Source: Pandoraea fibrosis | GTDB lineage: Bacteria; Pseudomonadota; Gammaproteobacteria; Burkholderiales; Burkholderiaceae | NCBI RefSeq assembly: GCF_000807775.2 | Contig: NZ_CP047385.1 | Span: 4,030,001 to 4,094,000, forward strand | Reading direction: 5' to 3' | DNA length: 64,000 nucleotides | In this document: positions 29,273 to 39,434 of the stretch, piece by piece | How positions within the stretch are numbered: position 1 is the first letter of the stretch | Layout of the letters: the number at the start of each line of letters is the position of its first letter | Position numbers and translations under genes: made by a program | Notes under the pieces: generated by a model | Databases searched by the model: none | What the model was told of the DNA's origin: nothing | The model's input: the letters and a program-made list of their open reading frames with translations, nothing else

Positions 29273-29998
29273 TCACGTCTCGAATAGATGGCGCGCGCCG
29301 CGCTGCGCCGCAATGTAGATCGCCTCTCCGCGATTGCGTGCACCGAGCCGGCGGTACAACGCGGACACATGCGTCTTGGCGGTGCCCTCGGAAATCACGA
29401 GTTGCTGGCAGATCGTTTTGATAGATAAACCGCGCGAGAGCAGTGCGAGAATTTCGTACTGCCGCTGAGAGATGCCGAGCAACGCCGACTCGGCCAGTTG
29501 TGTCGCCTTGTCGCCCCCCAATGGGAACACCGGCAGACGCGAGAGAGGCAACGCCTCGCCCATGGCCTCCTGCCGCCAGAGCACGAGTAACGCCGAGAGT
29601 GCCTCGTCCGGGACGAATCGCCCGCCCGAGAACGCCAGATCGAAGACCGAACGAATTCTCGCGACCGAATTCGGCCACGGCAGGCAGGCGGCAACACCCG
29701 CTTGCAGCCAGCGAATGATTTCATCGGGAAAACCCGCATCGCCGATGACGATAACGGGCACCGCCGGCACGCATTCGGCCGCCATCGCACACAAGGTGTC
29801 GATCGCAGGCGTGCGAGCCACGGACTCCTCAAGGACAAGCGCGCGACGCGACGGCAATTCGCGCAACCAGACCCAGTCCTGCACCGTCACATCGTCGACG
29901 TGACGCAAGACCGGCGGTGTCGCGTTCGCTTCGGTCTGCAACGCGACTTGCAGGCCGCTCAGCCAGGTGGCAGCCTCACCCACGACCAGCACACGCAT
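29273..29998 (-). CDS. LuxR-family regulator with degenerate receiver
   Basis: This 241-residue protein has a receiver-like N-terminal half and a C-terminal LuxR helix-turn-helix (SQRQYEILALLSRGLSIKTI, then SEGTAKTHVSALYRRLG). The receiver lacks key residues: the phospho-acceptor position reads LVLEES, there is no acidic pair near the N-terminus (RVLVVGEA), and the usual Lys near ACLPWP is missing. It therefore probably does not use normal phosphorelay. The ATG at 29998 has AGGGGA five nt upstream. It is divergent from the small exported protein at 30.4 kb and may control the amyloid locus. Confidence 0.85.
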   Translation of the reverse strand: MRVLVVGEAATWLSGLQVALQTEANATPPVLRHVDDVTVQDWVWLRELPSRRALVLEESVARTPAIDTLCAMAAECVPAVPVIVIGDAGFPDEIIRWLQAGVAACLPWPNSVARIRSVFDLAFSGGRFVPDEALSALLVLWRQEAMGEALPLSRLPVFPLGGDKATQLAESALLGISQRQYEILALLSRGLSIKTICQQLVISEGTAKTHVSALYRRLGARNRGEAIYIAAQRGARHLFET

Positions 29999-30396
29999 GG
30001 TTTCCCCTGTCGTTCCGGTCGACACGTTCGTGCCGCCGTTCCCCCGCTGTTTTTGTCACGCCCGTCGCGTGTTTTGTTGACTCGGCCGGAAAATCATCAT
30101 CCTCCCCATCGCCGGGACAAAAAACCGAAGAAACCCTCGGTCCCTCGTCATCTTTTACGCATCGGGCGTCACCTCGCTTTCGGCTCAGTTTACGCGCGAA
30201 GCCCGCATGGCAACACGTCTGCCTCGCGCAGACGCCCATGATTGTTGCCTCTGCGCGACAAACCGCAATCTGCGTAAATTATTTACTCAATTTTCGGAAA
30301 TTCCGCTATTACTTTTTTCCCCTTTCCTTTCTCAAATCGCGCAATAGAATACAAGCAGTGCTGGGAGGACAGCATGCGGAGGCCGGGGGGCACGCC
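29999..30396. other. Divergent promoter region of the LuxR gene and the LWDE protein
   Basis: This 398-nt stretch holds no gene. The last 120 nt before the rightward gene are AT-rich (AAATTATTTACTCAATTTTCG and on) and contain TAGAAT near 30344, a possible -10 box. TGGCAACACGTCTGCC at 30209-30224 has the GG-N10-GC spacing of a sigma-54 site but matches the consensus only in part. Confidence 0.4.
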
Positions 30397-30861
30397 ATGA
30401 TCAGAATCACCATCAAGACGACGCGCACTGCCATGCTCTGCCTGGCGACGGCGTGTTTTGCAAGCGCCGCTCAGGCCGATATCACCGGCGTTGCCGGCGT
30501 ACCGGCCATTGTGAGCGACGCGCTGCTTGCGAGTACTCGCGCCGCGAACCTCCAGCCAAGCGTTGTTGCCAATCTGTCCGGCATCACGCGCGCCGGGGTC
30601 GCTCCCATCAATGCGACCAACACGGCAAACGCAACCACCACGATCGCCAACAACGTCCGTTTGTGGGACGAAGTGATTCCGCCAGCGCCCGCGCCCAAAC
30701 CCACGCAGGCAACGATGATGTCGCCGGGTCAGCCGCCTTCGGCCGTCACCGCAGCGTCGTATTCTTCCAATTCACCGTCGTCCCTCGCATCGGGATTGCA
30801 GCCGGCGAGCCTGAAAGTCAACGCCAGCGCCGGTCGCATCCCTGTCGGCATCTCGCGCTGA
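30397..30861 (+). CDS. Small exported protein with LWDE motif, amyloid locus
   Basis: This 154-residue protein has a clear Sec signal (residues 1-27, cleavage after AAQA). The mature part is rich in Ala, Asn, Thr, Ser and Pro. Two segments match the protein encoded at 36.8-37.3 kb: SDALLASTRAANLQ (40-53) against DDEQLGTQRGRNLQ, and NNVRLWDEV (85-93) against NGVTLWDEL, each followed by a Pro-rich run. GGGGGG lies close before the ATG. No known family is recognised. It is likely a second copy of a locus component, on the opposite strand at the other edge of the cluster. Confidence 0.7.
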   Translation: MIRITIKTTRTAMLCLATACFASAAQADITGVAGVPAIVSDALLASTRAANLQPSVVANLSGITRAGVAPINATNTANATTTIANNVRLWDEVIPPAPAPKPTQATMMSPGQPPSAVTAASYSSNSPSSLASGLQPASLKVNASAGRIPVGISR

Positions 30862-31043
30862 TCGCCGCACCGAAAGCGTCGGCGGAGGCGGCTATGGCCG
30901 GCACTGCCGCTGCGCATTCCCGCGACCGTTTGCCTTCACGTTCACCTTCCCTGCCTTAGCGCCACTGCGCGTCGCCAATTCGGCCGACGCGCAATGCGCC
31001 TTTGCACAGCCTTGTCCTGCCCGACTCCCCTCCCCTCACATGA

Positions 31044-32375
31044 TCAGAACGTGTACGGGAAGCGCAGACCGATGACATAGTTCGGCGCATCCGGCGACAT
31101 GCCGGCGTTGACGTAACCGTTCACGGTCCAGTGCTTGTTGATGGCGTAGTTGATACCGAAGTTGAGCGACGCCGCGTTCGTCGTGCTGCCTGCCACCGTG
31201 GTCCACGAGCTGCCCGGCGTGGCGGTCTTCGTTGCCCGCGAGATCGCCGTCGAGTACGAGATTGACAATGCGGTCTTGTCGTTGAGCGCCAATGCCATAC
31301 CGGCCCCCACCTGAACGATGTCGCCGAGCTTGACCTTCGCGGGTTGCGTCGTGCCTTCGATCGTCGAGATGTCGTCGAACGAGCGGGCCACGTTGTACGT
31401 GTACGCCACGTTGGCGAACAACACGATCGGATCGTAAGTCCGCAGGAACGACAGCCCGGCCGTGAACGCCCAGATCCCGTTCCCCGTCGGCAGCCGCGAG
31501 GGTGTCGTCAGGTTGTTGTTGGTCGGATCGGGCGTACCGAGCTTGATACCGAATGGCGAGGTGCCGGTCGGTGCCGTCACGCGGAACGACGCCACGATAT
31601 CGGGCCAGTTCGCGTTCTCCTTGACGATCTGGTAGTACAGAGACGCATTCACGTCGCCGATGTTCGCCGAGTTCTTGCTGATGTCGCTGACCGACGACGC
31701 CGCGCCGCCAACCCCGCCCGAAATGAAGTCCGAATTGCGGTAGAGGTAGGGCACGTCGAACGCCACACTCAACCGGTCGTTGATGCCGTAGCGCGTGTTG
31801 ACGTCGAACGTCCACACGTTGGCCTTGGTCTCGCCAAGGTTCAACTGTCCCAGGAAGATCGCGTCGAGGGCGAGGAAGCCGCTCAACACAAGTTGGCGCC
31901 GGTCGTAGTAGCTGTAGCTGATACCGGCATCGATCGTGAGCTTGCGATCGAACAGGGGCGCGTGCTGCGCCTGCACCACGGCTTCTTCCGCCGGGGTGCG
32001 CTGCGAGTCACTCTCGCTCTTTTGCATCTGCTGCGTTTCGCCGATCGGCGTGGCCGAGGTCGGGCCCGCAGCACCGGCGGCGCCGCCGCCGGGGGTTCCT
32101 GCTGAGCCGGCGGCAGAACCATCGCCGGGTGAGACCTGTGCAATCTGCGCAGTGTCCCACGCGGTCAGACCACGACCGCGTTGCGCCATCTCAATGTCGG
32201 TGAGGCGCTGTTTCAGAGAAGAAATTTCCCGCTGCTGCCGGTCGACCATGTCCATCAACATTTGCAGACGGTCGTCCGGCGATGGGTTCGTATGCTCCTG
32301 AGCCTGGGCCGATAGCGTGAAAAGCAGTACCCCCAACGGAATAGCGGCAACGGGAAAAAAGCGGTGAGTGTTCAT
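31044..32375 (-). CDS. FapF-like outer-membrane barrel with N-terminal coiled coil
   Basis: This 443-residue exported protein has a signal peptide ending SAQAQ near residue 26, a coiled-coil helix (33-66, RLQMLMDMVDRQQREISSLK), a Gly/Ala/Ser-rich linker (82-112) and a C-terminal domain of alternating strands from about 145 that ends GLRFPYTF, an aromatic BAM recognition end. This order of parts matches FapF, the secretion pore for amyloid subunits in Pseudomonas. The ATG at 32375 follows GGGGGGG. A sigma-54 type promoter lies 230 nt upstream. Alternative: another porin-like transporter. Confidence 0.75.
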   Translation of the reverse strand: MNTHRFFPVAAIPLGVLLFTLSAQAQEHTNPSPDDRLQMLMDMVDRQQREISSLKQRLTDIEMAQRGRGLTAWDTAQIAQVSPGDGSAAGSAGTPGGGAAGAAGPTSATPIGETQQMQKSESDSQRTPAEEAVVQAQHAPLFDRKLTIDAGISYSYYDRRQLVLSGFLALDAIFLGQLNLGETKANVWTFDVNTRYGINDRLSVAFDVPYLYRNSDFISGGVGGAASSVSDISKNSANIGDVNASLYYQIVKENANWPDIVASFRVTAPTGTSPFGIKLGTPDPTNNNLTTPSRLPTGNGIWAFTAGLSFLRTYDPIVLFANVAYTYNVARSFDDISTIEGTTQPAKVKLGDIVQVGAGMALALNDKTALSISYSTAISRATKTATPGSSWTTVAGSTTNAASLNFGINYAINKHWTVNGYVNAGMSPDAPNYVIGLRFPYTF

Positions 32376-32686
32376 GATCCCCCCCGGGTAAAGGTGCGGA
32401 CGGGCGTCCGCGCGCAATCCAACAAAACACGTATTACCCACAACGTTGTCCTTGCTGCTCGACTGCGGGGTGACGCGTGCGAAACCCGTAACCCGTACCC
32501 CACTCCTTCGATACGGCACGTCCGGGTCCTGCCGACATCACCTTCTTGTGCGCCGCACCTGCTATCGCGGCAATGCCCCACTTCTATTTTTCATGGTGTC
32601 CGTCAGCAACTTGAGTGCCAGACACTGGGACCGGCGTCGCACTGTGCATACACTGCTCGACGCCGTCACTTCACTTGCGCTTCACT
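32376..32686. other. Leader region of the FapF-like gene
   Basis: This 311-nt gap separates the FapE-position gene from the barrel gene. It contains a -24/-12 site at 32604-32621 and, on its upstream side, two direct copies of TTCACTT at 32670-32676 and 32681-32687, 11 nt apart. No gene is seen; the frame extending the barrel ORF into it is not protein-like. Confidence 0.5.
32604..32621 (-). promoter_or_regulatory. Sigma-54 (-24/-12) promoter for the FapF-like gene
   Basis: The minus strand reads CTGGCACTCAAGTTGCTG. Against the consensus TGGCACG-N4-TTGCW only the seventh base differs, and the GG and GC pairs are exactly ten bases apart. Transcription would start near 32592 and give a leader of about 215 nt. 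Confidence 0.7.
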
Positions 32687-33448
32687 TCATCGGCGCACGG
32701 CGACCATATTCGCCATGGCGTTCTGAATTCCCACCTGTCTCAGTGCATTCGACGTGAGCGGATTCGTTTGCAGATTCAACTGCATCGTATTCATGACCTG
32801 CTGCGCGTTACCCGCGACCTGCACGACTTGCATGATCTGATTCATCGCGCCGCCAGCGCCGCCGGCCACGCTCTGGCCGAGATTGCCGTTCGGCGTATTG
32901 AGCGCTATCTGCATGCCGGCCGACGTGATGGCCACGCTCGCACTCAGATTGCCCACCGTTGTCTGCGAATTGTTTGCGCCCTGCCCGCTGACCGGTACCA
33001 GCGTGGAGATCGATATGCCAGGGCCAAACTGGATTGTGGCTTTGTTCAGTGCATTGTTCGCGTCGCCCGCAACCTGCGTAATCTGTGCGACGCCGTTCAC
33101 GAGCACGCTCGCCGCACCCGCGACGGCCTGCGTGATCGGTGTAGTCGCGTTCACGAGGCCGGGGATAATGCCGGTCGCCGCACCGGTCTGTATCTGCACG
33201 CCGCCACTGCCCTGACTCACGCCAAGCACCCCTGTGGCGGCAAGGCTCGCGCCAGTCGGCATTTGCCACTGCGATTGCATAACGAGCTGGAAGCCCGTGA
33301 TCATGTTTTGTTGTGCATACTTGCCGGTCGCGTGCGAGAGCACTTCATCGCTCACAGGCGTCCAGGTCTCGGGCACCACACTCGACGCGAATGCCGGCAC
33401 GGCGCTCGCGAGCAGCGGGATAGCCAGCATCGGAACATATCGATTCAT
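32687..33448 (-). CDS. Exported protein at the FapE position
   Basis: This 253-residue protein has a Sec signal (residues 1-21, PAFA then SS). It follows the C39 peptidase by 12 nt and precedes the barrel gene, the same place as fapE in Pseudomonas. The mature part is rich in Ala, Gln, Val, Asn and Gly with NALNKATIQFGPGISI and SVAGGAGGAMNQIMQVVQ. Near the N-terminus VSDEVLSHATGK (32-43) resembles a double-glycine leader. Homology to FapE is inferred from position and composition, not from a clear motif. Confidence 0.65.
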   Translation of the reverse strand: MNRYVPMLAIPLLASAVPAFASSVVPETWTPVSDEVLSHATGKYAQQNMITGFQLVMQSQWQMPTGASLAATGVLGVSQGSGGVQIQTGAATGIIPGLVNATTPITQAVAGAASVLVNGVAQITQVAGDANNALNKATIQFGPGISISTLVPVSGQGANNSQTTVGNLSASVAITSAGMQIALNTPNGNLGQSVAGGAGGAMNQIMQVVQVAGNAQQVMNTMQLNLQTNPLTSNALRQVGIQNAMANMVAVRR

Positions 33449-33460
33449 GATGGTCTGATC

Positions 33461-34171
33461 TCAAAACAGGTCCGCCCGGATGATGCCGAAATCCACCATC
33501 GGGGTCGGTGACGTCCCGGTCGCCAGCGCGCTGTCGCGCAGCTTGGCCGCCAGGGATTCGTTTCCTTTGAGCAGCGGTGAATCCTCCAGAAACGGCTTGC
33601 CGATGACCGCCAGCACCAAGCCGTTCCACTGCTTGGCAAAATCGGCTTGCTCGATGATGCGATTGCCGAGCGCCGGGTCGGACACGAACACGCGTCCGTC
33701 CTTCGCTGCCTTGATGACCACAAAATGCTGATAGCCGTTGACGTCGATCAGCGCGATGACCGGGATCTTCAGGTCGTACAGCGCACTCACGTCAACTTTG
33801 AATCCGCGCCCCTCGAGTCCGAGCGTCTCCACGAATTTCTTCATGTCGAGCATCGAGAAGCCATTTTTGATGACCGTTTCCGGGTTGGAAAACACCATCA
33901 TTTTCTGGATCATTTCCGGCTCGGGAATATCGATCCCGTAGCCATAACGCAGCAGTGTTGCGAGCGCTGCAGATCCACAACTGAAGTCGTATTCCTGCTG
34001 GACCAGATTCACGTAGTGCATCGATTTGAATGACCGCATCTTCTTGACCGCCGGTACACCAGTCGAAGATTCGAGATTCACCGATGCGTACTGCGCGTGC
34101 CCGGCCACGCTTGCGCACGCCAGAGCGCAAACCGTAGCGATCCTTACTGCGGCACGACGCGCATCATTCAT
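33461..34171 (-). CDS. C39-family cysteine peptidase, FapD-like
   Basis: This 236-residue exported protein has a signal peptide (about 1-26) and a papain-like C39 domain. Gln59 and Cys65 (QEYDFSCGSAALATLL), His149 (NGYQHFVVIKA) and Asp165 (VSDPALGN) make up the expected active site. C39 domains cut after double-glycine leaders in bacteriocin exporters; a stand-alone one between amyloid subunit genes and a barrel gene corresponds to FapD. The ATG at 34171 has GAGGTG six nt upstream. It lies 52 nt after the main repeat-protein gene. Confidence 0.85.
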   Translation of the reverse strand: MNDARRAAVRIATVCALACASVAGHAQYASVNLESSTGVPAVKKMRSFKSMHYVNLVQQEYDFSCGSAALATLLRYGYGIDIPEPEMIQKMMVFSNPETVIKNGFSMLDMKKFVETLGLEGRGFKVDVSALYDLKIPVIALIDVNGYQHFVVIKAAKDGRVFVSDPALGNRIIEQADFAKQWNGLVLAVIGKPFLEDSPLLKGNESLAAKLRDSALATGTSPTPMVDFGIIRADLF

Positions 34172-34223
34172 GACACACCTCATGAAAAAACCGGTCCGGG
34201 AATTCCCGGACCGGTCAGCGACA

Positions 34224-35603
34224 TCACTTGATTGCCGAGATGGCGAGGCTGTTGGCCTGCACGTTGCCGATACCCGCTGCCACGTTCACACCGACGTTGC
34301 CGCTAGCCCAGGCGAGTGCGCCGTTGCCCAGCGAAGCGTTGGCGATGAAGTCGCCCGAGGCCTTCATGCTTGCCGTTTGGTCGGTTTGAGCCGTCGAGTT
34401 GGCTGCACCGCCCTTGAACCAGCCGTGTCCGCCTTGCGAGACGGCTGCGGCCAGACCGTTTTGCTGCACGTTACCCACACCCGACGCCACGTTCACACCC
34501 ACATTCCCGGTCGCACCGGCAAGGGCACCATCACCCACGCTGGCGTTGACATAGAACTGCGAGATGCTGGCCGAGCCCTTCGACGACTGGTTCGCGAACA
34601 CCTGCGCCGAGGCATACACCGGCTGAGCGTTGAGCGAAGCGATCGCGACGTTGTTGGCCTGCGCGTTGTCGGCACCTGCTGCCACGTTCACGCCGATGTT
34701 GCCGTTGGCGTTAGCCAGCGCGCCATTGCCGAGCGTTGCGCCCATCGTTTGCAACGTCGAAGTGTTGACGTGGAGCGTGAGCGCACCCTTGGTCCAGGTG
34801 GTGGACTTCATGTACGTATCCTGGAAGCCCCACAGTGCGCCTGCCGCAATCGAATCGCTCTCGATCGATGCATTGCCGTGGTTCAGGACCGCATGGAACG
34901 CCGCATCAAAACTCTTCTGCGTGTTCAGGAAGCCTGCCGCCAGGAACCCGGCAGCCTGCTGCGATTGCTGGCCATAGGCATAACCGCCCCAGGCCGAGCC
35001 CTGACCCGCACCGAAGTTGCCGACAAGGTAGCCGCCATACAGTGCCAACCCGCCCGGCAGCGGAATGACGCCGCCACCGATGATGCCTCCGCCGCCAGCG
35101 ATGTTCGAGTATTGATACCCGCCACCGGCGATGAAACCACCCGAACCCGAGCTGGATTGCCCTGCCACATAAGCAGCACCGGCCTGGAACGCCTGACTCG
35201 TGTTCAGGTGGCCGTTCGCGCTGGCGTTCACCCACGACGTGGAATCGTCGTAGTGCGTCGTCGTCTTGCTGCCAATCAGGTAGGCACTGCCTTGATTCGA
35301 CACCGTGGTGGTCTTCGAATCAACGCCGTACGTTACGTGGCCCGTCGTGTAAGAACCGAGCAGCGGGCCCTTCAGATTGACGTGGTGTACGTCTACGCTC
35401 TGATTGCTTTGCACAACCGCGTTGCCGGTGTTATCCACCGTGACGCAGCCCTTGATGCCGATCAGCCCGAAAATGCCGACCAGGTTCAGAACGTTGGTCT
35501 CGTTGCCGATGAACGAGAAGCTATATTGCTGGTGATGGGGTGACGCCAGGGCGCTACCCGTTGCTACCAGCAGTGCAGCCGCTGCAATGGCTTTCGTTTT
35601 CAT
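34224..35603 (-). CDS. Major Fap-type amyloid repeat protein (FapC-like)
   Basis: This 459-residue exported protein has a signal peptide (1-20, SALA then SPHH), a Gly/Ser/Tyr-rich middle (about 150-220) and three related repeats at 289-322, 354-388 and 423-456. Each repeat reads close to NGALA-x-A-x-GNVGVNVAAG then GNVQANSLAI. The pattern G-N-[IV]-G-V-N-V-A-[AS]-G-x(2)-N-x-Q-x-N is that of Pseudomonas FapC/FapB amyloid repeats. There is a lone Cys at 53. The ATG at 35603 has AAGGAG six nt upstream. It is the best candidate for the fibre subunit. Confidence 0.82.
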   Translation of the reverse strand: MKTKAIAAAALLVATGSALASPHHQQYSFSFIGNETNVLNLVGIFGLIGIKGCVTVDNTGNAVVQSNQSVDVHHVNLKGPLLGSYTTGHVTYGVDSKTTTVSNQGSAYLIGSKTTTHYDDSTSWVNASANGHLNTSQAFQAGAAYVAGQSSSGSGGFIAGGGYQYSNIAGGGGIIGGGVIPLPGGLALYGGYLVGNFGAGQGSAWGGYAYGQQSQQAAGFLAAGFLNTQKSFDAAFHAVLNHGNASIESDSIAAGALWGFQDTYMKSTTWTKGALTLHVNTSTLQTMGATLGNGALANANGNIGVNVAAGADNAQANNVAIASLNAQPVYASAQVFANQSSKGSASISQFYVNASVGDGALAGATGNVGVNVASGVGNVQQNGLAAAVSQGGHGWFKGGAANSTAQTDQTASMKASGDFIANASLGNGALAWASGNVGVNVAAGIGNVQANSLAISAIK

Positions 35604-35633
35604 GACCATCTCCTTGACGAGAGAGTTACCCAG

Positions 35634-36284
35634 TTAAAAAGATGTGCCCGCCGGGGGACGGAGCACAAAAACATTTGCGGTTACATTGCCTATCCCAGCC
35701 GACTGGTTGACTTGGACCACACCGCTCGCACCGCGGAAGGCGTCACCGGAAATCGACGCCGTGCGGAATTGATCGTTGAGGTTGTCGCGCCCAGCCGGGC
35801 CACCCTTGGAGATCGCAGCGGATAGTGCCGTATCCGATACGCTCGCCACTCCAGACGCATCGCCGGTCACAATGACGGTCGCGTTGCGTTGAAGATTGCC
35901 GGCACCGCTCGCCTGGTTGACTTGCGTCAGCCCCGAGGTGCCTGAAAATGCGTTGCCTTGAATTGCGGCGCTGGCAGCGCCGGTCGTCGACGTGACGAGG
36001 GCTTGCTGATTGGTACTAGATGCGCCGACCGTCAGCCCGCCGCCGTTCGCGATCAGCGCGCTGTTGGCCTGCGCGTTGTTGACGCCCGCCGCCTGGTTCA
36101 CCCCAAGCGCGCCGGTCACCCCTACGGCGACGCCGTTCTCGATGGTGGCGTGCGTGCCGTTGAGTTCACCGTTCGTGATCCAGATATCCTGCGCCGACGA
36201 CGCTCCGGCAAATGCACCCAGCAGGGCAGCGACCGTCAGAGGGAGGGCGCGCTGCGCGCCACGCGACCCGCGATGTGCGCTCAT
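35634..36284 (-). CDS. Minor Fap-type repeat protein (FapB-like)
   Basis: This 216-residue exported protein has a signal peptide ending near SSAQ (residue 32) and three repeats at about 49-79, 109-139 and 179-208. Each carries V-N-Q-[AS]-[AS]-G-x(2)-N (GALGVNQAAGVNNAQAN, GLTQVNQASGAGNLQRN, GVVQVNQSAGIGNVTAN). They are a variant of the repeats in the neighbouring larger protein, which suits a nucleator or minor subunit like FapB. Its ATG overlaps the stop of the upstream gene as ATGA, so translation is probably coupled. Confidence 0.78.
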   Translation of the reverse strand: MSAHRGSRGAQRALPLTVAALLGAFAGASSAQDIWITNGELNGTHATIENGVAVGVTGALGVNQAAGVNNAQANSALIANGGGLTVGASSTNQQALVTSTTGAASAAIQGNAFSGTSGLTQVNQASGAGNLQRNATVIVTGDASGVASVSDTALSAAISKGGPAGRDNLNDQFRTASISGDAFRGASGVVQVNQSAGIGNVTANVFVLRPPAGTSF

Positions 36285-36793
36285 TTCGCCGCTCCTGCTG
36301 CGCCGAGACTCGTGAGCGGCGCCAGCGCCGAGCTGATCACCGACGGCACGAGCGTGCCGATGCTGCCGATGCCACCCCCACCGCCAGCGCCGGCGCCGAA
36401 TCCGCCGCCCACGCCGTTAGAGGTATTGAGCGCGTTGCCGCCACGGGCATTGCCGACGAGCACGCCCATGACCGGGTTGATGCCCGATTGCACGGCGCCC
36501 GTGACGAGCCCCGCGTTGGCACGGCCGGTCAATTCGCCATCAGTGACCTGATTGACGGCGCCCATGGCGGTATTGAACGGTCCCGTCGGGAAGGCCGGCA
36601 CCGCGACGCCAATGGGGTTCTCGACACGCGGCAGACCGCGGTACGCGATCTCCGGGCCGATGTTGCGCTCGACCACGATGTCGCCCGGCGTGGCCGGTTC
36701 GGCATGGGCTCGGCCGGGCTGCATCGCCGGGGCCAGCGCCACGAGCATCGTGGCGAGCAGACTTCCGGCATGCGTCATGGAGAGTTGGGGCAT
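36281..36793 (-). CDS. Small Gly-rich exported protein of the amyloid operon
   Basis: This 170-residue protein has a signal peptide (about 1-31, GRAHA then EP). The mature part is rich in Gly, Asn, Val and Ala and includes NARGGNALNTSNGVGGGFGAG, given here as NARGGNAL and GVGGGFGAG. VTDGELTGRANAG at 83-95 resembles a double-glycine leader. It starts 5 nt after the previous gene, with no strong ribosome site; an ATG at 36778 is an alternative. No family is recognised; its place suggests a role like FapA or an added subunit. Confidence 0.65.
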   Translation of the reverse strand: MPQLSMTHAGSLLATMLVALAPAMQPGRAHAEPATPGDIVVERNIGPEIAYRGLPRVENPIGVAVPAFPTGPFNTAMGAVNQVTDGELTGRANAGLVTGAVQSGINPVMGVLVGNARGGNALNTSNGVGGGFGAGAGGGGGIGSIGTLVPSVISSALAPLTSLGAAGAAK

Positions 36794-36798
36794 CTTGT

Positions 36799-37335
36799 TC
36801 ACCGCGTCGTGTAAGTCACACGCGTCACCTGAACGTTGTTCACGCCATTCGACAGTTGCTGCGGGCGCGGCGTCGGCGTCACGGCGCCGGGCAATTCGTC
36901 CCACAACGTAACGCCGTTGGCGAGCGCCATTCCGGGTGACTTGACCATCGCGCCGCCTTGCAAATTGCGGCCGCGCTGGGTTCCGAGTTGTTCATCATCG
37001 ATACGGGCTGCCGCAAGCGGCATACCATCGGCAACGTTGCCGGCGTCTTCACGGCTCGCGACGGCCGGCGCTTCGTCCGCCGGGGTCTGTACCGCAACCG
37101 GCGGCACGAGGCTGACATCGGCGTCGGAGATCGGCATGGCCGGCAGCGTGGTCGCGCCAAACGAAGCCGGCATCATCGAACCCGTCAGCATCGCCACGTG
37201 CATGAGCGGCGAGCGTGTGACGTCCTGGGCTTGCGCTGGTACGGCGCACAGACCGAGCGTCACAACGATGGCTGCGCTCAATGCGCTGGCGCCTTGTCGT
37301 ACGCGGTACTGCATTTCGGTGGTGAGAATTCGCAT
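36799..37335 (-). CDS. Exported LWDE-motif protein, first gene of the amyloid operon
   Basis: This 178-residue protein has a signal region ending PAQAQ near residue 37. It contains IDDEQLGTQRGRNLQ (112-126) and NGVTLWDELPG (140-150) followed by a Pro/Thr/Gln-rich end, both shared with the protein at 30.4 kb. The ATG at 37335 has a strong AAGGAGG eight nt upstream, and a sigma-54 type promoter sits about 30 nt before the start codon. No named family is recognised. FapA, a chaperone-like protein, heads the Pseudomonas operon; equivalence is only positional. Confidence 0.7.
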   Translation of the reverse strand: MRILTTEMQYRVRQGASALSAAIVVTLGLCAVPAQAQDVTRSPLMHVAMLTGSMMPASFGATTLPAMPISDADVSLVPPVAVQTPADEAPAVASREDAGNVADGMPLAAARIDDEQLGTQRGRNLQGGAMVKSPGMALANGVTLWDELPGAVTPTPRPQQLSNGVNNVQVTRVTYTTR

Positions 37336-37362: not shown

Positions 37363-37381
37363 AAAGCGACTTCCGTGCCAC
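37363..37381 (-). promoter_or_regulatory. Sigma-54 (-24/-12) promoter of the amyloid operon
   Basis: The minus strand reads GTGGCACGGAAGTCGCTTT. It matches TGGCACG-N4-TTGCW except for one T to C change, with GG and GC ten bases apart. Transcription would start near 37353, just upstream of the AAGGAGG ribosome site of the first gene, giving a leader of about 18 nt. Confidence 0.72.
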
Positions 37382-38075: not shown

Positions 38076-39434
38076 TCAGGCCGGCACGCCCGATTCGTCA
38101 CCACGCAGCCCATACCGGCACATCAGTCGATAGAGGGTGATGCGTGAAATACCCAGCTCTGCGGCCACGTCCGTCAGCCGGTGACAGTGGCGCAGCAATG
38201 CCTGCTCGATGGCCGTTCGTTCGGCCTCCGCGCGAATTTCTTCCAACGTGCGCACCAGCGTCGGCACCCACGGCAGCAAGTCGAGATCCTTGGCCGAGAT
38301 CGTGCGGCTGTCGGCCATGACAATGGCGCGGCGCACGCGGTTGATCAGTTCGCGAACATTCCCCGGCCAGTGATACTCGTACATCGCCTGCACCGCGCAT
38401 TGCGTGAAGCCGCGGATTTTGCGATGGTTATCGCCTTTGAAGCGCTGCAACACATGGTGGGCGAGGATTTCGATGTCTTGCCCGCGTGCGCGCAGCGGCG
38501 GTTCCTCGACGCGCAGCACACACAGGCGATGGTACAGATCCATGCGGAAGCGGCCTTCCTTGACGGCCTCCTCCAGATCCACGTGCGTTGCAGAGATGAT
38601 GCGCACATTGACCGGAATCACCTCATGTCCACCTAGACGTTCGATAGCGCCCTGTTGCAGGAAACGCAACAGACTGGCCTGACTCTCGAACGGAAGATCG
38701 CCGATTTCGTCGAGCAACAGCGTACCGCCGTTGGCTGCCTCGACGCGTCCGATCTTGCGGGCATTCGCGCCGGTGAATGCACCACGCTCATAGCCGAATA
38801 GTTCGGATTGCATCAGATGCGGAGGAATGGCTCCGCAATTGATCGCCACGAACGGCCCCTTCGCGCGCAACGAGCGCTCGTGGATAGCCACCGCGGTCAG
38901 CTCCTTGCCCGTGCCCGACTCGCCCGAGATAAACACGGGCGCGTCCGTATTGGCGACTTTGCGGATCGTGCGGAAAAGTTGCTGCATCGCCTCGCACGTT
39001 CCGACCATTTCCTGATCGCCGCCGACTTGCGGCGTGAAGGTCGGGACCTCCGAGAGCGACGCCATGCCCCACGCATGACCGATCGAATGCGCAAGCTGAT
39101 CGTTCGTGCACGGCACATTGACGTAGTCGAAGCAGTAGTCACGAATCAACCGGCGAATCGCGGTTGTCGTCAGTTGCTCGGGATTTGTGGCCGCAACCCA
39201 GCCGACGGTGGCAGGTTGCATGCAGGACTCGAATGCGCCCATCTCGCGGTCGCTATAACCGCTCGCCAGGTCAATGAGTGCTGCGCTGGTGACCCCGGGA
39301 TTCAGAATGCGACCGACGTCGCTGGCGCTCTTGGCCGGCACGACTTGCCAGCCTTGCTCCCCCAAAAACGACAGCAAACCATCGTTATGCTTTCGGGAGG
39401 CATAAATCAGGGTGCGCCCGGTATCGTTAGCCAT
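38076..39434 (-). CDS. Sigma-54-dependent activator with degenerate receiver (VpsR/BerB-like)
   Basis: This 452-residue enhancer-binding protein has a receiver-like N-terminus (1-120), an AAA+ domain and a C-terminal Fis-type helix-turn-helix ([18 protein letters not shown]). The AAA+ part is complete: Walker A GESGTGKE (171-178), GAFTGA (218-223), which contacts sigma-54, and Walker [10 protein letters not shown]. The receiver reads [10 protein letters not shown] and FDYVNVP, so the usual conserved Lys is lost, as in VpsR-type regulators that respond to cyclic-di-GMP. It lies upstream of, and parallel to, an operon with -24/-12 promoters, so it is the likely activator. Confidence 0.88.

What the first reader, a model, noticed from the sequence alone, without database searches (positions are those of the whole stretch)
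30397..37335. A Fap-like functional-amyloid export locus in a Burkholderiaceae-type genome
Two neighbouring exported proteins carry three repeats each with the G-V-N-V-A-A-G-x-x-N-x-Q-x-N signature of Pseudomonas FapC/FapB. They are followed, in the Pseudomonas order, by a C39 peptidase (FapD-like), a FapE-position protein and a coiled-coil plus barrel protein (FapF-like). Three further small exported proteins with no known family are part of the locus. The repeat motifs, active-site residues and order are seen; the amyloid function is inference.
Basis: partly seen in the sequence, partly recalled or inferred. Interest (0 to 1): 0.9.

Follow-up and report, generated by a model that had tools for sequence, protein, structure and literature searches.

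The report
Fap amyloid operon with extra peptide
This is a complete operon for the known biofilm amyloid Fap in a Pandoraea bacterium; beyond that, it carries two copies of an unnamed small exported protein that shares with FapE a bacteriocin-like leader, which suggests what the operon's protease recognises.

Summary
The locus is a Fap operon: FapA to FapF are found in order by NCBIfam profiles, all below NCBI's naming cut-offs; FapF and FapC match solved structures; FapB and FapC have three repeats each. Fap in Burkholderia and Pandoraea is already in print, so that part is ordinary.

The other two small proteins (36799-37335, 30397-30861) are paralogues of an unnamed family, here called LWDE. 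In a 369-genome sample, the six LWDE loci from genomes outside the alignment all lie beside fap genes.

S3 and FapE share a 12-residue motif that fits the C39 'double-glycine' leader except at -1, where all 79 distinct FapE leaders have R/K; all 79 have G at -2 and L/M at -7. FapD is the only PF03412 peptidase in this genome. In 8 of 11 diverged loci the motif is a true RGG. Published work leaves FapD's target undetermined, with FapE and FapF suspected. I propose that FapD reads this leader in FapE and LWDE proteins. Recognition is inferred; cleavage is untested.

The parts
36799..37335 (-). S3: LWDE-family exported protein, probably first gene of the operon, 178 aa
   Evidence: no Pfam or NCBIfam match at E<=1
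36967..37002 (-). S3 leader-like motif IDDEQLGTQRGR (residues 112-123)
   Evidence: score 18.5 with a matrix of 24 leaders from outside the genus, against a best of 8.6 among 180 signal-like ORFs (18.1 and 8.5); predicted helix 114-119
36895..36906 (-). S3 LWDE motif (residues 144-147)
   Evidence: invariant in 30 of 30 aligned family members, which were picked through this motif
37365..37380 (-). sigma-54 -24/-12-like site TGGCACGGAAGTCGCT, first base 45 nt upstream of the S3 start codon
   Evidence: same place (within 1 nt) in 13 of 13 same-genus loci checked, one base changed in two of them
36281..36778 (-). FapA
   Evidence: NF058617 E 1.1e-7, below NCBI cut-off; position before fapB
35634..36284 (-). 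FapB, three repeats
   Evidence: NF058557 E 1.3e-23
34224..35609 (-). FapC, long N-terminal region then three repeats
   Evidence: NF058558 E 1.8e-18; PDB 9nqd E 1.2e-13
34189..34216 (-). terminator-like hairpin between fapC and fapD
   Evidence: a hairpin in the same gap in 13 of 13 same-genus loci, with a T run in 10 of 13
33461..34171 (-). FapD, exported C39 peptidase
   Evidence: PF03412 E 2.5e-26; NF058616 E 6.3e-60; only PF03412 match in the genome
32687..33448 (-). FapE
   Evidence: NF058559 E 1.3e-15
33320..33355 (-). FapE leader-like motif VSDEVLSHATGK (residues 32-43)
   Evidence: score 16.3 (16.1); predicted helix 34-46 just before the folded part that starts at residue 50
31044..32375 (-). 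FapF, coiled coil plus barrel
   Evidence: NF058560 E 2.9e-111; PDB 5o65 E 2.5e-78
30397..30861 (+). S1: second LWDE-family protein, convergent with the operon
   Evidence: E 1.3e-19
30511..30546 (+). S1 degenerate leader VSDALLASTRAA (residues 39-50), A in place of G at -2
   Evidence: score 3.0, rank 19 of 180
38076..39434 (-). sigma-54 activator with VpsR domain
   Evidence: PF00158 E 8.2e-69, PF20161 E 5e-22
29273..30025 (-). LuxR-type regulator beside S1
   Evidence: PF00196 E 1e-12

Best explanation
The locus is a Fap functional-amyloid operon, probably sigma-54-controlled, with one extra kind of substrate. The products of S3, S1 and fapA-F enter the periplasm by Sec (inferred from signal-like N-termini). 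There the C39 peptidase FapD recognises a leader-like helix, hydrophobic-x-D-x-x-L-x-x-x-R/T-G-R/K, in FapE and in the LWDE protein S3, and most likely cuts at or next to its glycine. This would free mature FapE and a disordered peptide of about 55 residues that carries V-T-LWDE and an N-x-Q tail. FapB, FapC, FapE and perhaps the LWDE peptide then leave through FapF; processing couples export to an intact FapD-FapF machine. Shown by computation: gene identities, the motif, its near-restriction to FapE and LWDE among the proteins of canonical Fap loci, and the position of LWDE genes beside fap genes. Inferred: recognition by FapD. Untested: cleavage, export and role of the LWDE peptide. The LWDE role most likely in my view is a minor fibril-associated or gating factor, at low confidence.
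For: Fap identity. Motif: a matrix of 24 leaders from outside the genus gives S3 18.5 and FapE 16.3, against a best of 8.6 (mean -0.60, sd 3.06) among 180 signal-like ORFs of 20 stretches of this genome plus the window (one search used 25 leaders, one from a second locus of a same-genus genome, with like results). Over 116 loci, scores of 12 or more occur in 115 of 115 FapE (16 of them trained on), but in 1/73 FapA, 2/115 FapB, 0/113 FapC, 4/116 FapD, 4/112 FapF. 79 distinct FapE leaders: G-2 79, L/M-7 79, L/I/V/M-12 78, E-8 56, against the published consensus L-12 xxx E-8 L-7 xxxx G-2 G-1 with a helix from -10 to -4 (PMC6959990). FapE model: helix 34-46 covers the motif; the fold begins at 50. 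Nine of 11 diverged FapD/FapF loci encode an exported protein near FapD with such a motif, RGG in eight; the RGG form is in 13 of 85 signal-like ORFs there, against 1 of 180 in the control. FapD is the only PF03412 match in the genome. LWDE proteins with a leader-like stretch: 44 of 116 loci; 6 of 6 LWDE loci outside the alignment's source genomes sit beside fap genes. Published: FapD cysteine needed for FapC secretion, FapE N-terminal peptides missing (PMC5557850).
Against: Position -1 is R or K in 79 of 79 distinct FapE leaders, whereas the C39 cleft is described as narrow, which explains GG specificity. In the window -8 is V (FapE) and Q (S3), not E. A matrix of only the 8 diverged-locus leaders gives FapE 13.3, just above the best of 180 control ORFs (12.6), but S3 only 9.1, below it. 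Of the six held-out LWDE proteins, four have a leader above the best control score; L218 has 7.9 and L217 none by score. Of two PCAT1 residues that grip L-7 and L-12 (A55, I59), one is Leu/Met in FapD but the other reads as Lys in my by-eye alignment. S1 scores 3.0 and has lost the glycine. In Pseudomonas the motif ends at residue 38-62 by crude start choice, while the published gap in FapE peptides reaches about residue 70; the same study saw FapA-D peptides throughout. LWDE proteins were found in 0 of 47 Pseudomonas loci. FapE stays conserved right after the motif.
Confidence: 0.65

Rival explanations
1. The shared motif is not a peptidase signal but a docking helix or structural cap of FapE and LWDE that binds FapF, FapB or the fibril; FapD cuts something else, such as the FapF linker.
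For: R/K at -1 in 79 of 79 distinct FapE leaders; conserved sequence continues after the motif; FapF and FapE are both suggested targets in print; RGG motif in the N-terminal part of FapF of four diverged loci.
Against: The motif matches C39 leaders in spacing and helix position, is RGG in 8 of 11 diverged loci, and is rare in FapF of canonical loci (4 of 112).
Confidence: 0.23
2. FapD only binds the leader, as a chaperone-like C39 domain, and holds FapE and LWDE for export without cutting them.
For: Non-cutting C39-like domains exist (PMC5557850, PMC5135000); odd -1 residue.
Against: Catalytic residues are in place, and change of the FapD cysteine abolished FapC secretion in the published assay.
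Confidence: 0.1
3. S3 and S1 are bystanders unrelated to the amyloid.
For: Not found in 47 Pseudomonas loci; no function known; S3 predicted mostly without structure.
Against: 6 of 6 held-out LWDE loci lie beside fap genes; S3 is the first gene after the conserved sigma-54-like site; its leader resembles that of FapE.
Confidence: 0.05

Closest known systems
Fap functional amyloid system of Pseudomonas (fapABCDEF)
   Same: All six genes in the same order, three repeats in FapB and FapC, C39 FapD, FapF barrel matching PDB 5o65
   Different: Two LWDE-family genes added, adjacent VpsR-type sigma-54 activator, scores below NCBI's equivalog cut-offs
Double-glycine leaders of PCAT substrates (CtA of PCAT1; microcins)
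   Same: Hydrophobic -12, L -7, G -2, predicted helix from -10
   Different: R/K at -1 in FapE; the leader follows a Sec-type signal, and the peptidase is an exported protein not fused to an ABC transporter
FilB/FilC (putative pilus system)
   Same: C39 peptidase plus related barrel; NF050078 matches FapD at 6.5e-37 and NF050079 matches FapF at 3e-13
   Different: FapD and FapF profiles score higher here
Unnamed proteins of Pandoraea, Paraburkholderia and Pararobbsia found with the LWDE alignment
   Same: Same family: 287 proteins at E<=0.001 among a capped 7994 candidates; 120 listed, the named ones mostly 'hypothetical'
   Different: No link to Fap in the papers I saw; a few carry other names (ESPR domain, PRC-barrel, copper resistance, pseudopilin)

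Membership tests
Fap system | FapB and FapC with three imperfect repeats | tested here: met
   three each; NF058557 and NF058558 matches
Fap system | fapABCDEF order in one cluster | tested here: met
Fap system | FapD: exported C39 peptidase with Q, C, H, D in place | tested here: met
   PF03412 2.5e-26; Q59 C65 H149 D165; signal sequence judged by eye
Fap system | FapF barrel homologous to the solved structure | tested here: met
   5o65 E 2.5e-78 over residues 143-443
Fap system | FapF trimer and N-terminal coiled coil | not tested
   coiled-coil-like stretch seen by eye only; no oligomer prediction available
Fap system | Scores above NCBIfam equivalog cut-offs (a naming rule, not part of the published definition) | tested here: not met
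   0 of 6 reach it; for FapF 0 of 101 genomes
Fap system | Amyloid fibres formed | not testable with these tools
   no experiment
C39 double-glycine leader | Hydrophobic residue at -12 and L at -7 | tested here: met
   FapE V and L, S3 I and L; -12 in 78 and L/M at -7 in 79 of 79 distinct FapE leaders
C39 double-glycine leader | E at -8 | tested here: inconclusive
   V in window FapE, Q in S3; E in 56 of 79 distinct FapE leaders
C39 double-glycine leader | G at -2 | tested here: met
   FapE and S3 yes, S1 no; 79 of 79 distinct FapE leaders
C39 double-glycine leader | G or A at -1 | tested here: not met
   K in FapE, R in S3; so called leader-like here, not a member
C39 double-glycine leader | Short helix from -10 to -4 | tested here: inconclusive
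   helices at FapE 34-46 and S3 114-119, low model confidence
C39 double-glycine leader | Cleaved by a C39 peptidase | not testable with these tools
   no experiment

The most novel reading that the evidence does not exclude
Fap loci and their diverged FapD/FapF cousins run a general periplasmic leader system: Sec delivers precursors, an exported C39 peptidase removes a double-glycine-like leader from FapE and from a family of short secreted LWDE peptides, and this cut licenses export through the FapF barrel. The LWDE peptide would be an unrecognised seventh Fap component that acts on the fibre or the gate.
Probability: 0.4. Interest if true: 0.82.

Novelty: new variant of a known kind. Interest (0 to 1): 0.6.

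Why it matters
FapD is needed for Fap secretion, yet its target was called unclear in 2017, undetermined in 2018, and in 2025 was only 'thought to' be FapE and FapF. A precise motif in FapE turns that into a one-peptide test. Large surveys of fap clusters used profiles for the six known genes only and described Fap as evolutionarily fixed; an extra family linked to many clusters would change that picture.

Tried and rejected
FapA as a FapD substrate: its D-x-E-L stretch scores 0.5 in the window, and FapA passes in 1 of 73. FapF linker in the window (LTDIEMAQRGRG, 7.1): weak; FapF passes in 4 of 112. A perfect sigma-54 site before fapF (32605-32620): absent from that gap in 13 of 13 relatives, so dropped. 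FapE model against the PDB: best E 0.083, no credible match. Coevolution of FapD with the -1 residue: several columns differ between canonical and diverged FapD, none with a conserved acidic residue in canonical FapD only. FapE/LWDE co-occurrence over 369 genomes: p 2e-8, but six of the genomes supplied alignment rows; without them 1 both, 4 LWDE only, 9 FapE only, p 0.13, so I rely on gene position. The loose motif pattern is uninformative alone: 25 of 85 signal-like ORFs near FapD, 31 of 180 control ORFs. Rfam: none. Sigma-70 scan: none found.

Limits: the 116 loci are my choice (window, 20 places out of the FapF hits, 16 class loci, 79 of 583 confirmed, itself a capped list), are heavy in Pseudomonas (47) and Pandoraea (14), and are not independent. 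L150, one of the 79, has only a weak FapE match (E 4.8e-4, motif score 5.8); by that E-value it is the one locus of 116 without FapE at E<=1e-4. Signal sequences and starts come from a crude hydropathy rule. The 180 control ORFs come from greedy gene choice; S3 and FapE themselves are not in that list. No preprints were searchable.
Full report
What is there. The window lies at 4030001-4094000 of a single 5,592,065-base chromosome. The genus is inferred to be Pandoraea: a relative of S3 named Pandoraea pulmonicola lies on a contig of 5,867,621 bases, the length of the contig of same-genus genome G013. On the minus strand, from 37335 down to 31044, lie S3, FapA, FapB, FapC, FapD, FapE and FapF; S1 lies convergent at 30397-30861. 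NCBIfam profiles give FapF 2.9e-111, FapD 6.3e-60, FapB 1.3e-23, FapC 1.8e-18, FapE 1.3e-15 and FapA 1.1e-7; all stay below NCBI's equivalog cut-offs. FapF matches the FapF crystal structure 5o65 at 2.5e-78 and FapC the solved FapC fibres at about 1e-13. Three repeats in FapB and in FapC are confirmed.

Is it new as a Fap locus? No. Dueholm 2013 (PMC3792158; first two of five parts and passages seen) reports Fap in Burkholderia and Ralstonia, and Rouse 2018 (PMC6173800; section 6 and passages seen) names Pandoraea. FapF-profile matches at E<=0.001 occur in 51 of 101 genomes, the window's own included; some are weak.

The neighbourhood is conserved. By tblastn over 20 fetched loci, all 13 same-genus loci keep fapF to fapA, S3, S1, the VpsR-type sigma-54 activator and the LuxR gene. 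A -24/-12-like site TGGCACGGAAGTCGCT begins 45 nt (44 in one) before the S3 start codon in 11 of these 13 and differs by one base in the other two; one base of the usual -12 element is not the consensus. S3 is thus probably the first gene of the operon. A terminator-like hairpin separates fapC from fapD.

S3 and S1 are one family. They share LWDE and a D-x-x-L motif. A search of the whole genome with their alignment returns S3 (8.8e-37), S1 (1.3e-19) and third, weakly (E 0.4), an N-terminal stretch of FapE that holds its motif. A protein search gives 287 relatives at E<=0.001 from a capped candidate list; those named among the 120 listed come from Pandoraea, Paraburkholderia and Pararobbsia and are mostly hypothetical. 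LWDE proteins with a leader-like stretch upstream are in 44 of 116 canonical Fap loci, including Halomonas, Methylophaga and Acidiferrobacterales loci, and in 0 of 47 Pseudomonas loci (names). In a sample of 369 genomes of the class, 11 hold a match. Six of these, this genome included, supplied alignment rows. The other five genomes hold six matching loci (L214-L218 and L080, the last already fetched as a Fap locus), and six of six lie beside fap genes: FapB in L214, L215, L216 and L080, FapD in L215, L217, L218 and L080, FapF in L216, L217 and L218. Their leaders score 16.2 (L214), 21.8 (L215), 8.6 (L216), 7.9 (L218) and 10.2 (L080), with none by score in L217.

The shared motif. FapE proteins carry L-S-D-x-E-L-x-x-M/L-R-G-R/K, starting 27-74 residues into the precursor in 77 of 79 named loci by a crude start choice (130 and 144 in two). 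The published consensus for C39 leaders is L-12 xxx E-8 L-7 xxxx G-2 G-1, with a helix from -10 to -4 that docks on the peptidase (PMC6959990, sections 7 and 8 and passages seen). Among 79 distinct FapE leaders G-2 is kept in 79, L or M at -7 in 79, a hydrophobic -12 in 78, D-10 in 71 and E-8 in 56; -1 is always R or K. A strict form ([LIVM]-12, E-8, [LIM]-7, G-2) occurs in 55 of the 79, and in 2 of 31,028 other 12-residue windows of FapE. The same pattern is found in 83/115 FapE against 0/73 FapA, 0/115 FapB, 1/113 FapC, 12/116 FapD and 9/112 FapF. A matrix of 24 leaders from outside the genus puts S3 (18.5) and the window's FapE (16.3) above all 180 signal-like ORFs (best 8.6) of a 464-kb sample that includes the window; a stricter matrix of 8 diverged-locus leaders keeps FapE above (13.3 against 12.6) but not S3 (9.1). 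In the FapE model residues 1-46 are of low confidence, with a helix at 34-46, and the confident fold starts at residue 50. In the S3 model the only helix of four or more residues besides the signal region is 114-119, inside the motif, and model confidence is low.

Diverged loci. Eleven second-type loci with a FapD and a more distant FapF were fetched. In nine of eleven an exported protein near FapD has such a motif, ending in RGG in eight; L088 and L091 showed none in such a protein, though L088 has one in FapF. The RGG form occurs in 13 of 85 signal-like ORFs around these FapD genes (the FapF of L087, L088 and L093 and one FapD among them) against 1 of 180 control ORFs. L218's FapF has it too. 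FapD is the only PF03412 protein in the window's genome; other C39-like families were not searched there.

What it means. In print, FapD's catalytic cysteine is required for FapC secretion, its target was unclear, Fap proteins were said to lack canonical C39 sequences, GG and GA motifs in FapE and FapF were pointed out, and FapE lacked N-terminal peptides in cells (PMC5557850, section 8 and passages; its supplement not seen). A 2016 review notes a double glycine in FapF (PMC5135000, passages). A 2025 review says FapD is thought to process FapE and FapF (PMC12822426, section 10 and passages). Of PMC8794836, PMC10233263, PMC11787515, PMC6173795, PMC9268375 and PMC12392863 I saw passages. I saw no description of this leader motif in FapE, nor of an extra exported family in Fap loci, in what I opened. 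I propose that FapD reads this leader in FapE and LWDE. The weak points are the R/K at -1, the Lys where PCAT1 has I59 (my reading), the stricter matrix for S3, and the degenerate S1.

Noticed in passing
34189-34216: Terminator-like hairpin between fapC and fapD, kept in relatives with changed loop; might lower fapDEF relative to fapABC.
   Followed up: partly
32605-32620: Perfect sigma-54-like site before fapF, in this window but not in that gap of 13 relatives.
   Followed up: yes
32687-33448: FapE itself carries a FapB/C-like repeat core (GVAQITQVAGDANNALN at residue 119).
   Followed up: partly
L087, L088, L093, L218: FapF of these diverged loci has an RGG motif in its N-terminal part, before the barrel.
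   Followed up: partly
38076-39434: Sigma-54 activator with a VpsR domain; ORFs similar to it lie in 13 of 16 class-level Fap loci, where the VpsR domain itself was not tested.
   Followed up: partly
L080:9472-9825: LWDE-family variant with LWDS in place of LWDE, beside fapB.
   Followed up: no
L076 and L080 FapC: Leader-like stretches (LSDKVLQNATG, LSDQVLQHASG) inside FapC proteins of two loci.
   Followed up: no
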